Shown here in pieces: positions 59,701 to 63,893 of a stretch of DNA of 64,000 nt. A model generated the notes under the pieces. The model made no database searches, was not told the origin of the DNA, and was given only the letters and a program-made list of their open reading frames with translations. The stretch's first letter is position 1. Each line of letters begins with the position of its first letter. Both the position numbers and the translations under genes were made by a program. Source of the stretch: an uncultured Lachnospiraceae bacterium (GTDB lineage Bacteria; Bacillota; Clostridia; Lachnospirales; Lachnospiraceae); assembly GCA_949948715.1 (NCBI GenBank), contig CATLGW010000005.1, forward strand, positions 21,951-85,950, in the 5' to 3' direction.

Positions 59701-61214
59701 TCCAGGGCCCCGGGATCGAAGCCGTCCTCGGAAAAGATGCTTTGGTAGGCCGTTTTCAAGGCGTCGAAGGCGGGCTTTAAGCGGTCGTTCAGCCGGTCAA
59801 TGACTTGGGACGGGGTGAGGGCGGAAGCGGCGGCGTGGGTGGCTGCAGCCTGCTGCTCGGCCAGGGCCGCAATTCCCTTGTAAAACGCCTCGAACTTGCC
59901 GGCCTCCGTCTCCGCCAGGATCTCGCTTTCCCGGATCGCTTCGCTCAATTTGGGGAAGGCTTCCAGGGCCTCCGGTGTGAGCTTTCCGGCCTGGTACAGC
60001 GCGACGAGCTCCTGTTTGGTCTTTTCAATTCCCTCTGAGTGGAAGATATCGGAAATCTCCATGTCGTTCCACGCATCCTGGTCCAGATATTCATAGATCA
60101 GTTTCATGGAATCATATATTTTTTTATAGCTGTTAAGAATGTCCTGGTCGGAGGAAGACAGGATTTCTACGCCGTTTTCTTGTTTCTCCACGATCCTGCG
60201 GTACTCGTCCTCCATGGCAAGACGCTTTTCCATGAGATCGTTGATGCTGGCCTCCAGCAGATTGGAGTAGTCCTCCACGTCTTCGGCGTAACCCTCCGCG
60301 TCCTGTTTGTACCAGGCGGCATCAGTGTCCTGGCCCTGGCGCAAGGCTTCCTCATACTGTTGGTAGGCTTCGTTGTAGAGCTCTTTCGCATTAATATACG
60401 TCACCAGGTTGTCTATGATGTTGTCTTTTTCGTTGTTCCACAGAGGTGTTTCGTTAAGGCTCTGTTCCAGGTTTTCTTCGGAAATGTTATATCTTCCAAA
60501 CTGTGTCTGGTAAGCGTTCACCGCTTTTTCGGCGGCTTCCCTGGAAGCGGCGGCCGCCTTCCGCTCCGCGATGTCCTGCTGAAGCAGGAGCTCTTTGGTG
60601 ATGTCCTGCAGCCTGGCAAGCTCTCCCTCCTCCACAATGGTCAGGGGGCCCTTTGCTTGCAGCTCGTCTATCCTCTGGCTGTGGCTGGCCAGTTCGGAAT
60701 TGATGTTCTCCAGATTGGACTTTGCGGATTGGTATTCGGAAAACGCGTCGCCCATGGCTTCGTTTGCCCTTTCCACCCTGTGGATCCAGTTGTCGATGCC
60801 TGTGGCGGCAAGTTCGATTACCTTGGCGACGGCCATCATGGCAAGCATATTTCCTGCCACGGCGAGGGCTTTGAACGCGGCTGCCCCAAGCTTAGTGGAG
60901 AGGGACATTCCCTCCACCGCCTCTTGAAAGCCCTTGGTGGTCATAGCGCCGTTTTTGCAGGTCTTGGCGTAGGCCATGATTCGGTCGTCCACCTCTCCCA
61001 TTGATTCTTTTACCGCTTCGGCGCTCAAGGTAGATGAATTAAAATAATTTGTAAATCTTTGAAATTGATTTAAGACCTCTGGATTTAAGATGGTTTTCGC
61101 CCTGTCGTTTGACAAGAAGGTGTCTATGACCCCGGAGGGACCGCTGATCCCTCCTTGCCGAAACGATTGGAACAGGTTCGTGACCTTCCCCTGCAATTCG
61201 CCGAGGGTCTTGCC
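56715..61214 (-). pseudogene. Tail tape-measure protein, C-terminal part (interrupted gene)
   Basis: About 1500 residues of the tape measure. It contains long helical stretches (for example EQLEDQKELLEEQVKSREET), two hydrophobic segments (KALAVAGNMLAMMAVAKVIELA), and a C-terminal region with VGEEGYEIIVRDGRFFTV, typical of siphophage tape measures. The frame continues upstream but runs into an insertion at 61215 that carries an opposite-strand gene. Removing the insert and one GGCAAG copy fuses this part in frame to the N-terminal ORF as ...CLENADRGK|TLGELQGKV. As it stands this part has no good start of its own. Confidence 0.88.
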
Positions 61215-61311
61215 AAAGAGGACTATTTCGTTGTGTTTTGCAGTGATAATCGTACTGATAAGTAGGTGTGGCACAGAGCCGCTTGTGGTGACGGCATTTA
61301 CCTTCGCAGTA

Positions 61312-61340
61312 GTGACAGACTGCCCCCTTTGTGCTAAAAT
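61312..61340 (+). promoter_or_regulatory. Promoter of the inserted zinc-ribbon gene
   Basis: GTGACA, 17-nt spacer, TAAAAT, about 28 bp before the start codon and opposite to the phage late direction. Confidence 0.75.
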
Positions 61341-61368
61341 AGTATAAAAAATAAAGGGGGAGAACCAT

Positions 61369-61860
61369 ATGGCCTTAATTACATGTCCCGAATGCGGGAA
61401 GGAAGTAAGCGATAAGTGCAGAGCCTGCATACACTGCGGATTTCCTCTTATTAACACCAAGTGCGACATCAATGGCGTAGTGTATGATTTTGAGAATGAA
61501 TTGCGGGTCGCCTTGCGTTTTAAAATGGAAGAATACATAGGTGCTGTTGGGATGATCCGGAAAAAGACGAAGCTAGATATGGAAGATGCCTGTAGGTTAC
61601 TTGATATCATCCGGGAAATACAGGCCATCCCTGCGAGCTATAAACCCTTGTACCCCTGTGAGGACCGTTCAAAATATTGTTATAGTGATACCAACGACGA
61701 CAACAGCGTCAGCAGCAGCGTCGAGTGCCCCTACTGTCACGGAAGGAACACCAGAAAGATCTCCGATGTCTCCAAGCTGGCAAATACGGCCTTTTTCGGG
61801 CTCCTGGGCACGAAACGCTATAAAGAGTGGCATTGCAATAACTGCGATTCCGACTTCTGA
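61369..61860 (+). CDS. Double zinc-ribbon protein (phage moron cargo)
   Basis: A 163-residue protein. An N-terminal zinc ribbon (CPECGKEVSDKCRACIHCG) and a C-terminal one (CPYCHGRNTRK ... WHCNNCDSDF) flank a central domain (about 30-95, DINGVVYDFENELRVALRFK). Zinc-ribbon proteins ending in a WHCNNCxSxF-like motif are common in Firmicute prophages and plasmids, with unknown role. GGGGGAG precedes the ATG. It is expressed from its own promoter against the tail operon, so it is likely made in the lysogen. Confidence 0.85.
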   Translation: MALITCPECGKEVSDKCRACIHCGFPLINTKCDINGVVYDFENELRVALRFKMEEYIGAVGMIRKKTKLDMEDACRLLDIIREIQAIPASYKPLYPCEDRSKYCYSDTNDDNSVSSSVECPYCHGRNTRKISDVSKLANTAFFGLLGTKRYKEWHCNNCDSDF

Positions 61861-61898
61861 CGGGAAAGCAGGGTTTATAAAAGGGCAGTCTTTGCTTA

Positions 61899-61933
61899 GG
61901 GGCGTCCACGGCTTTTTGCCGGGGACGCCCTTT
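61899..61933 (+). terminator. Terminator of the zinc-ribbon gene
   Basis: GGGCGTCC pairs with GGACGCCC; an inner CGGC-TTTTT-GCCG stem closes the loop and TTTCT follows. It completes an autonomous promoter-gene-terminator unit. Confidence 0.8.
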
Positions 61934-62246
61934 CTCCGTTTCTTCCACATGGGGCCAGGAGAGCTCCCCGCCTGGTTTTGCCGCCAGGAAACGGCCAGTA
62001 CCGAGCGCATCTTACCGGGGCGTCGTTGCAGACAGCCCCGGCCGCCTGTTGTCGCTGCAGTGAGGGCTTTTCTCAAAGAGAACTGTCCCTACGGACCATG
62101 GGAGCGTCACGTTGTTACGATTCCGTCCCTGTCGCCAGGGAGGAAGTGTAGTGATGCGCCGCCGTTACGCGGCCGTTGTACCCATTTCCCCGTATATTGA
62201 GGCTTCGTTTCTGCCTGTGTATCTCACAGGCAGCGGCAAGAAAACT

Positions 62247-63425
62247 TCAGTATCCCAAAGAACACTTGCCGCGGTCGGCATTTTCAAGACAACGAAAAAG
62301 GCCAGACATTTTAGGCCTACCGACGTTTTTCAGACCGGAGAGCAGTCCTGCTCCCAGTCCCAGGGAGCTTAGAGGTCCCAGGGCCTTCGTGAGTCCGTTT
62401 ACCAGAGAGAGGAGGCCGTTTAAGGCGTCCAGGGCGACGGTGACCGCTTCGGAGTCCAGCAGGTTTCCCATGGTGTCCGTCCAGGTGTTGGACAGACGGC
62501 CCAGGGAGCCCTCCCAGGAGTCCGCCGTCTTTGCCGCCAGCGTTTGCATGGCTCCCGCGCCGTCCGCATATTCCCGGAGCATCTCCTCATATAAACCGTA
62601 ATTTTCAAGAAGGGCTTTCAGGGCCTCAGAGGAGGAGCCTTCGCCCAGGGAGTTTAACAGTGCTGATCTTCTCTGGTCTCCGGGGGCAAGGCCTGCGTAG
62701 ACCTCCGCCAGCTCCTTTAACACCTCCATGGGGTCCCGCAGGGAGGCGACGCCGTTTCTTGTCTCCTTCAGGGAGACGTTCAGGGCCAGACAGGCCTCCC
62801 GGTATTGCCAGAGCCCTTCGCCGTCCACGCCGTTTTCCGCGTCCTTCACCTGCCGGATGTTTGACAGGATGGCCTGGAAGGCCCGGGCCGCCTGGTCCCC
62901 GTCCTGTCCGGTGGCTGCCATCATAGCGCCCAGGGCCGCGGCGGTCTCTCCGGCCTCCACGCCCAGGGAGGCGGCGGTTTCTCCGGCGGCAGTGCAGGCC
63001 CTTGTCAGCTCCGCCATGTCAAGGGCGTTCCGGCTGGCGATTTGGCTGGCGCCGTCCAGGATTTCCCGCAGTTTTTCCACGTCGCCGCCCAGGAGGTAGG
63101 CGTGGTTGGCGGCGTTAAGGTACTGGTCTGCCAGCGCGGCGGTGACACCCGCCGCGGTCTGCAGCTCCAGGGACAGCCCGGCGACGGCGGAGGCGTTTTC
63201 ATAGCCCGCCTTTGCCGCCGCCCGGTAGCTTTCCAGGTAGTCCGACGCCGCCTTGCCGTATCTGGCGGCGGCATCCACCGCGTCGTCTCCGATTTTTGTC
63301 AGGTCGGCCCTGGTCAGGAGGGCGTTGTCCTTGCCGATCTGCGTCAGGAGGGTGTCCACCTTCTGAAGCTCGGGTATGGCCTCCGTCGCCTTTTTCTGGA
63401 GCAGACTTAGAATGTTTTTACTCAT
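62247..63425 (-). CDS. Tail tape-measure protein, N-terminal part (TP901 core)
   Basis: A 392-residue ORF with the TP901-type tape-measure core: Ala-rich helices, NALDMAELTRACTAAGETAASLGVEAGETAAALGAMMAATGQ and LGRLSNTWTDTMGNLL. It reads GLKNVGRPKMSGL...LENADRGK and then runs into insert DNA (CSLGY, stop). The start is behind AAAGGAGAAC. Tape measures set tail length and extend through the membrane during DNA injection. A truncated core alone is unlikely to work. Confidence 0.9.
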   Translation of the reverse strand: MSKNILSLLQKKATEAIPELQKVDTLLTQIGKDNALLTRADLTKIGDDAVDAAARYGKAASDYLESYRAAAKAGYENASAVAGLSLELQTAAGVTAALADQYLNAANHAYLLGGDVEKLREILDGASQIASRNALDMAELTRACTAAGETAASLGVEAGETAAALGAMMAATGQDGDQAARAFQAILSNIRQVKDAENGVDGEGLWQYREACLALNVSLKETRNGVASLRDPMEVLKELAEVYAGLAPGDQRRSALLNSLGEGSSSEALKALLENYGLYEEMLREYADGAGAMQTLAAKTADSWEGSLGRLSNTWTDTMGNLLDSEAVTVALDALNGLLSLVNGLTKALGPLSSLGLGAGLLSGLKNVGRPKMSGLFRCLENADRGKCSLGY

Positions 63426-63674: not shown

Positions 63675-63893
63675 AGTTTTTCCTCCTGTGTGTTGTGTTT
63701 TAGATAGATTGCTTCCACTATCCCTATAGGAAAAATCCGGTTGGGGAGGAAGGGGCTTCTCTAACCTTGATTTTCCTGGGGTTATGGGGTGTTCTTTTTT
63801 GGGGGCAAATCAAACATGGTGATGAGATGGCTTGCTGCGTTTTTCTTTCTGGTCTTTTCGGTGGCACAGAGCCGCTAGTATAACGTTCGCCAA
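63675..63893. other. Non-coding gap upstream of the tail genes
   Basis: 219 bp with no supported ORF, promoter or terminator. It contains a second copy of GTGGCACAGAGCCGCT (63852-63867) that also occurs inside the moron insert. Confidence 0.5.

What the first reader, a model, noticed from the sequence alone, without database searches (positions are those of the whole stretch)
61209..62270. A zinc-ribbon moron with its own promoter and terminator splits the tape-measure gene; excision restores the frame exactly
CTTGCC flanks the insert as a direct 6-bp repeat. The two tape-measure halves are in the same frame, the N-half reads LENADRGK up to the repeat and the C-half reads GKTLGELQ from it, and removal of 1056 bp joins them without loss. 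The cargo is on the opposite strand with a clear promoter, ribosome site and terminator. The insertion should disable the phage tail while keeping the cargo active, or be removed during induction.
Basis: seen in the sequence. Interest (0 to 1): 0.65.

Follow-up and report, generated by a model that had tools for sequence, protein, structure and literature searches.

The report
Phage tail gene intron hiding antisense cargo
The DNA that splits this prophage's tail-length gene is a self-splicing type of RNA intron (group I), removed from the message rather than from the DNA, and in related gut-bacteria prophages introns at the same spot repeatedly carry backwards-facing zinc-binding genes or known anti-phage defence genes, so it looks like a shelter for protective cargo.

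Summary
The insert is real, but it is a group I intron, not a moron bounded by CTTGCC. True boundaries are 61251-62318 (1068 bp): exon 1 ends GGT (62319), exon 2 starts ATT (61250), and the joined protein reads KNVG|IITAKHNEIVLFGKTLGELQ. The evidence is comparative. Exon 1 pairs with an internal guide sequence in 42 of 45 locus records over seven exon variants, with U.G replaced by C.A in ten; P2, P3, P4, P6a and P8 covary; intron lengths are often not multiples of three. Rfam does not recognise it. Dozens of Clostridia prophages are interrupted at the same codon. In 34 of 79 locus records the intron carries zinc-ribbon genes of the window's family: 42 genes, all antisense. Sister introns carry Septu (PtuA), Kiwa (KwaA), TIR, NsnA/NsnB or RelA/SpoT genes. 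Best reading: late mRNA splices the tape measure intact, while the cargo is expressed antisense in the lysogen, probably as superinfection exclusion or defence. Splicing and function are untested. An antisense endonuclease in a phage group I intron is known (LittleE); defence cargo in tape-measure introns I did not find reported.

The parts
62319..63425 (-). Tape-measure exon 1, ends ...GLKNVG (GGT)
   Evidence: PhageMin_Tail, PHROGs; end set by homologues and IGS pairing
61251..62318 (-). Group I intron (1068 nt), insert proper
   Evidence: Exon pairing, covariation, relatives
62274..62285 (-). Internal guide sequence: P10 strand GAAAAT (62285-62280) and P1 strand GCCGAC (62279-62274)
   Evidence: Complementary to exon 2 (5 of 6) and exon 1 (6 of 6); covaries in relatives
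62233..62272 (-).
   Evidence: Covaries over six introns
62044..62203 (-). P3 (GCCU 62203-62200 / AGGC 62047-62044) enclosing P4 (ACGG 62193-62190 / CCGU 62094-62091)
   Evidence: Covary over six introns
61993..62125 (-). Catalytic core modelled as R1: P6 62090-62063, P7 62056-62053/62007-62004, P8 62041-62035/62021-62015
   Evidence: 143 bits
56715..61250 (-). Tape-measure exon 2, starts IITAKHNEIVLFGKTLGELQ
   Evidence: Open frame, P10 pairing, homology
61369..61860 (+). Antisense cargo gene, 163-aa protein with a zinc ribbon at each end
   Evidence: Pfam Zn_Ribbon_1; family of 42 antisense genes in tape-measure introns
61312..61340 (+). Promoter-like site of the cargo (GTGACA-17-TAAAAT)
   Evidence: Consensus scan, 1 found against 0.7 expected
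61900..61933 (+). Terminator-like hairpin of the cargo; T-run only in the plus direction
   Evidence: Read from the sequence

Best explanation
The insert is a group I intron in the prophage tape-measure gene whose peripheral region carries an independently expressed gene on the opposite strand. In the lysogen, late genes are silent and the antisense zinc-ribbon gene is read from its own promoter and stopped by its own terminator before it runs into the ribozyme core. After induction, late transcription passes through the intron, the RNA splices itself out (guanosine attack after exon 1 GGU, joining to exon 2 AUU), and full-length tape measure KNVG|IITAKH... is made. The cargo most likely protects the lysogen from other phages (superinfection exclusion or defence). 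Shown comparatively: site, boundaries, ribozyme helices, antisense orientation, recurrence. Inferred: splicing in vivo, lysogenic expression, protective function. Confidence about 0.93 for the intron and about 0.5 for a protective cargo.
For: Exon 1 and guide sequence covary: 42 of 45 locus records pair over at least 6 positions, seven exon hexamers, U.G replaced by C.A in ten records. P10: exon 2 AUAUUC faces guide GAAUAU, and in-frame exons are found that way. P3, P4, P2, P8 and P6a covary; 0 of 500 shuffles reach the covariation score. Intron-less homologues continue K(N/D)xG|ITQ at the junction. Inserts of different sequence classes sit at the same codon in dozens of prophages. Lengths in 7 of 13 are not multiples of 3, so only splicing can join those halves. 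Cargo family: 42 of 42 genes antisense, up to 3 tandem paralogues at this site (L119, L202) and about 12 in L214. Sense cargo in sister introns: PtuA E 2.6e-129, KwaA 9.5e-16, NsnB 6.8e-62, NsnA 3.6e-31 to 2.1e-61, ThsB TIR 8e-9, RelA_SpoT 2e-16. Other antisense cargo includes lipoproteins and membrane proteins. Outside tape measures the zinc-ribbon family sits beside a repressor/ImmA-like pair (L210) or beside a lipoprotein gene near an integrase (L207).
Against: Rfam, including its group I intron model, gives no hit at E up to 10 in the window insert or E up to 0.1-1 in relatives. No RNA evidence of splicing. P10 of the window has one mismatch. P7 and P6 do not vary, so they carry no covariation evidence. 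The zinc-ribbon protein has no PADLOC hit and no informative fold match (mean pLDDT 75, best PDB E 0.97). Cargo and tape-measure similarity are only weakly correlated (Mantel r 0.11, p 0.03), which does not favour a tape-measure-specific target. The NsnA-like GmrSD_N proteins could be intron-mobility nucleases rather than defence.
Confidence: 0.85

Rival explanations
1. The insert is a DNA element removed precisely from the chromosome on induction, like the intervening elements in sporulation genes, restoring the tape measure.
For: An in-frame, exactly removable insert in a late gene.
Against: No recombinase in the insert, no repeat at the true ends, RNA-structure covariation along the insert, exon-guide pairing.
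Confidence: 0.03
2. The prophage is dead: a moron insertion destroyed the tape measure and only the cargo is maintained.
For: The halves are separate ORFs; no splicing was measured.
Against: Same codon interrupted in dozens of divergent prophages with both exons kept open and homologous; exon-guide compensation shows selection for splicing.
Confidence: 0.05
3. The two halves are translated as two separate polypeptides that assemble together.
For: Each half is an open frame.
Against: Exon 2 has no start site at its beginning in relatives such as L020, where the first Met is over 100 codons in; intron-less homologues are single chains.
Confidence: 0.03
4. The intron is as described, but the antisense zinc-ribbon protein serves intron mobility (an unrecognised homing endonuclease or its helper) rather than protecting the lysogen.
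For: Antisense homing endonuclease in LittleE (PMC3706429); zinc fingers occur in some homing endonucleases (my knowledge); the family also sits next to intron-less tape measures.
Against: No nuclease domain; tandem paralogues, up to about 12, are unlike a homing gene; family members occur at non-tape-measure sites by a repressor or integrase.
Confidence: 0.15

Closest known systems
Group I intron in the major capsid gene of mycobacteriophage LittleE with a leftward-transcribed homing endonuclease (PMC3706429)
   Same: Temperate phage structural gene, U before and G at the end of the intron, antisense gene inside, splicing shown there by RT-PCR
   Different: There the cargo is a homing endonuclease in a capsid gene; here it is a zinc-ribbon gene in a tape measure, recurrent across prophages and sometimes multiplied in tandem
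Group I introns of Bastillevirinae and T4-like phages (PMC11878797, PMC2988022)
   Same: Self-splicing intron with a gene in a peripheral loop
   Different: The intron genes described in the passages I read are endonucleases; the Bastillevirinae paper does not mention tape measure or antisense
Ltp of phage TP-J34, HK97 gp15 and SNIPE: proteins acting on DNA entry or on the tape measure (PMC3952083, PMC13190303)
   Same: Prophage- or host-encoded protection at the stage of phage DNA injection; antisense cargo of sister introns includes lipoproteins and membrane proteins
   Different: No sequence relationship shown; the target of the zinc-ribbon proteins is unknown
Defence genes carried at fixed prophage sites (PMC9519451)
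   Same: Prophage-borne anti-phage genes
   Different: Here the site is inside an essential late gene and is made tolerable by RNA splicing

Membership tests
Group I intron | 5' splice site after U paired with G of an internal guide sequence (P1) | tested here: met
   GUCGGU/GCCGAC; 42 of 45 locus records, seven exon variants, C.A substitution in ten
Group I intron | Intron ends in G; guide sequence also pairs with exon 2 (P10) | tested here: met
   Ends CAGUACG|; 5 of 6 P10 pairs in the window, 6 of 6 in several relatives
Group I intron | P3-P7 pseudoknot with P4, P6 and P8 in the standard order | tested here: met
   P3, P4, P8 covary; P7 AGCG/CGCU and P6 AGGG/CCCU present but invariant
Group I intron | Guanosine-dependent self-splicing that joins the exons | not testable with these tools
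   No RNA data
Group II intron | GUGYG...AY ends, domain V, reverse transcriptase | tested here: not met
   Starts AGGCC and ends ACG; no Rfam hit; no reverse transcriptase gene in the insert
Insertion sequence / transposon | Terminal inverted repeats, target-site duplication, transposase | tested here: not met
   No transposase or repeats at the true ends
Homing endonuclease (the cargo) | Recognisable nuclease domain | tested here: not met
   Only zinc-ribbon and unknown-function hits
Described superinfection-exclusion or defence family (the cargo) | Sequence match to a described defence protein | tested here: not met
   No PADLOC hit for the zinc-ribbon protein; the works-like claim rests on context only

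The most novel reading that the evidence does not exclude
Tape-measure group I introns of Clostridia prophages are a dedicated niche for anti-phage cargo: splicing hides defence and exclusion genes inside an essential late gene, antisense orientation lets them be expressed in the lysogen, and tandem copies of zinc-ribbon genes diversify there, possibly against the tape measures of rival phages.
Probability: 0.35. Interest if true: 0.87.

Novelty: new variant of a known kind. Interest (0 to 1): 0.76.

Why it matters
Self-splicing introns in phages are usually explained as selfish elements with homing nucleases. A recurrent tape-measure intron that carries antisense zinc-ribbon genes or recognised defence genes would be a second reason for phages to keep introns: separately regulated room for cargo inside an essential gene. 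It also warns annotators that many 'split' or 'disrupted' tape measures in gut prophages may be intact after splicing, since Rfam does not see these introns. The zinc-ribbon family becomes a concrete, testable candidate for a new prophage-encoded protection family.

Tried and rejected
Rfam for the window insert and relatives: no hit, even at E 10 for the window. CTTGCC repeat as boundary: rejected by homologues and by the guide sequence. A permissive P1 scan over many possible splice positions gave mostly noise and was replaced by a test with exon 1 fixed by protein alignment. Structure prediction of the cargo (mean pLDDT 75) and PDB searches by fold or sequence gave only generic zinc-ribbon matches. 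Mantel test of cargo against tape-measure similarity: weak. Profile alignment A2 could not be used on genome contigs, so a DNA pattern from the core was used instead. Papers: no report of defence cargo in tape-measure introns found with the searches run; the library is open-access only.

Full report
What is there. The window lies in a 54-contig genome (67% complete) and its right end is a contig end. A prophage tape-measure gene runs on the minus strand. The N-half (62319-63425) matches PhageMin_Tail and tape-measure PHROGs. The C-half runs to 56715 and is homologous over more than 800 residues to an uninterrupted tape measure elsewhere in the same genome (L030). Between them is a plus-strand gene for a 163-residue protein with a zinc ribbon at each end, a promoter-like site and a terminator-like hairpin.

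Where the insert ends. In relatives found in family- and order-level genomes and viral contigs, the tape-measure reading frame stops just after the same residues, K-N-x-G. Uninterrupted homologues read KNVG|ITQ (L028) and KDYG|ITQ (L030, L132) there. Exon 2 in relatives begins G|ATATTCAAAACA (IFKT..). In the window this gives exon 1 ending GGT at 62319 and exon 2 starting ATTATCACTGC at 61250: an insert of 1068 bp and a joined protein ..GLKNVG|IITAKHNEIVLFGKTLGELQ...

Why it is a group I intron. The last six bases of exon 1 pair with an internal guide sequence 28-45 nt into the intron, with U.G at the splice site. In the window-type introns, 42 of 45 locus records keep the pairing (some records are the same prophage in two collections, so the independent number is lower, roughly 40). 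Seven exon hexamers occur and each is compensated in the guide: GTCGGT/GCCGAC, ATCGGT/GCCGAT, GCTGGT/GCCAGC, GGCGGT/GCCGCC, GTTGGT/GCCAAC, TTCGGT/GCCGAA and GTCGGC/ACCGAC. The last has C.A in place of U.G, a substitution that I know from the group I literature to be isosteric (L023, L024 and L032 add three more hexamers). The preceding bases GAAUAU pair with exon 2 AUAUUC (P10). P3 covaries fully among six introns (GCCU/AGGC, GGAG/CUCC, GGUG/CACC, GAGA/UCUC, CAGG/CCUG), as does P4 (ACGG/CCGU, GCUG/CAGC, GCGG/CCGC). P2, P6a and P8 covary (score 0.440 against 0.134 in shuffles, 0 of 500 reaching it; sliding the partners destroys it). The folding energy is 5 SD below shuffles. Rfam sees nothing, so this is a divergent member; I rely on anatomy and covariation, not on the library.

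Splicing rather than reading through or DNA excision. In 13 introns with both exons located, lengths are 776-4624 nt and 7 are not multiples of three, yet the exon phases are conserved. There is no recombinase. Splicing itself was not observed.

Recurrence and cargo. A pattern from the ribozyme core found 21 viral and 33 genome stretches. Those that carry a recognisable tape measure have the intron at the same place, mostly in Lachnospiraceae and other Clostridia. A covariance model of the core hits only tape-measure introns in 299 family genomes. Different intron classes occupy the same codon, and class-2 introns also occur at other tape-measure positions (L211-L213). In 79 tape-measure intron locus records, 34 carry a gene ending in the window's zinc-ribbon domain (CPYC.S.N..KIS......FG..S.K..K..C..C...F/W). 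There are 42 such genes, all antisense and none sense. L202 and L119 have three tandem copies and L186, the closest relative of the window's gene, has two. L214, in a single-contig genome, has an 8.9-kb interruption with about a dozen antisense paralogues; its tape-measure assignment rests on gene order and is less firm. A faecal phage record, MT837120, appears to show the same layout. Other antisense cargo includes lipoproteins (L111, L174, L182), membrane proteins (L026, L204) and a helicase resembling GajB (L196).

Sense-strand cargo in sister introns is informative. PADLOC finds PtuA of Septu (L138, E 2.6e-129), KwaA of Kiwa (L136, E 9.5e-16), NsnA (L135, L171, L173, L201), NsnB (L128), a ThsB-like TIR protein (L193) and a weaker hit for a RelA/SpoT-domain protein (L118); Pfam adds a HEPN protein in L173. 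These proteins were chosen by eye, not sampled without bias; of ten further sense ORFs scanned, four hit. For several of these loci exon 2 was not located, so some sense ORFs may lie beyond the intron. Outside tape measures, the zinc-ribbon family sits beside a repressor/ImmA-like pair (L210) and beside a lipoprotein gene near an integrase (L207). In intron-less relatives similar zinc-ribbon genes sit just upstream of the tape measure in the sense direction (L027, L028, L030).

Mechanism. Most likely the intron lets a late gene tolerate a cargo cassette. In the lysogen the antisense promoter expresses the cargo, and its terminator, which has a T-run only in that direction, ends transcription before the core. 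After induction the late transcript splices. The antisense layout separates lysogenic from lytic expression. Protection of the lysogen is the best guess for the cargo because of the company it keeps. The idea that it acts on incoming tape measures has precedents for other proteins (Ltp, cited in PMC3952083; SNIPE, PMC13190303), but the weak correlation between cargo and tape measure does not favour it.

Known relatives. LittleE's capsid intron has an antisense endonuclease gene and is spliced (PMC3706429). I found no paper on tape-measure introns carrying zinc-ribbon or defence genes in the open-access library searched. A Clostridium clostridioforme prophage (LM41 phi2) annotated with two tape-measure ORFs is nevertheless released from cells (PMC11318856); whether that split is an intron was not checked.

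Noticed in passing
61268-61286 and 63861-63879: A 19-nt near-identical repeat GTGGCACAGAGCCGCTWGT, once in the intron just before exon 2 and upstream of the cargo promoter, once between the upstream tail gene and the tape measure; its 13-nt core has no other copy in the loci fetched.
   Followed up: partly
1711-1968: A GC-rich tandem repeat with a 27-bp period (CGGGGARCGCCCCGGGCAGAGGATTTC).
   Followed up: no
L030 (G000 contig 21): A second prophage in the same genome has an intron-less tape measure with three tandem, nearly identical sense zinc-ribbon genes and a fourth type directly upstream.
   Followed up: partly
L214 3716-11311: Run of about a dozen antisense zinc-ribbon paralogues inside a probable tape-measure gene, in two N-terminal types with varied C-terminal zinc ribbons.
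   Followed up: partly
L182 (1593-2967 nt after exon 1) and L207 6051-7219: A zinc-ribbon gene paired with a lipoprotein gene in the same orientation, once downstream of a tape-measure exon 1 and once near an integrase: possible two-gene unit.
   Followed up: no
L047, L124, L173 intron cargo: BRO/ANT antirepressor-like genes on the sense strand in or next to tape-measure introns (L047 confirmed by Pfam; the others by similarity).
   Followed up: no
window right end 64000: The window ends at the contig end, so the rest of this prophage upstream of the tail genes is missing.
   Followed up: yes
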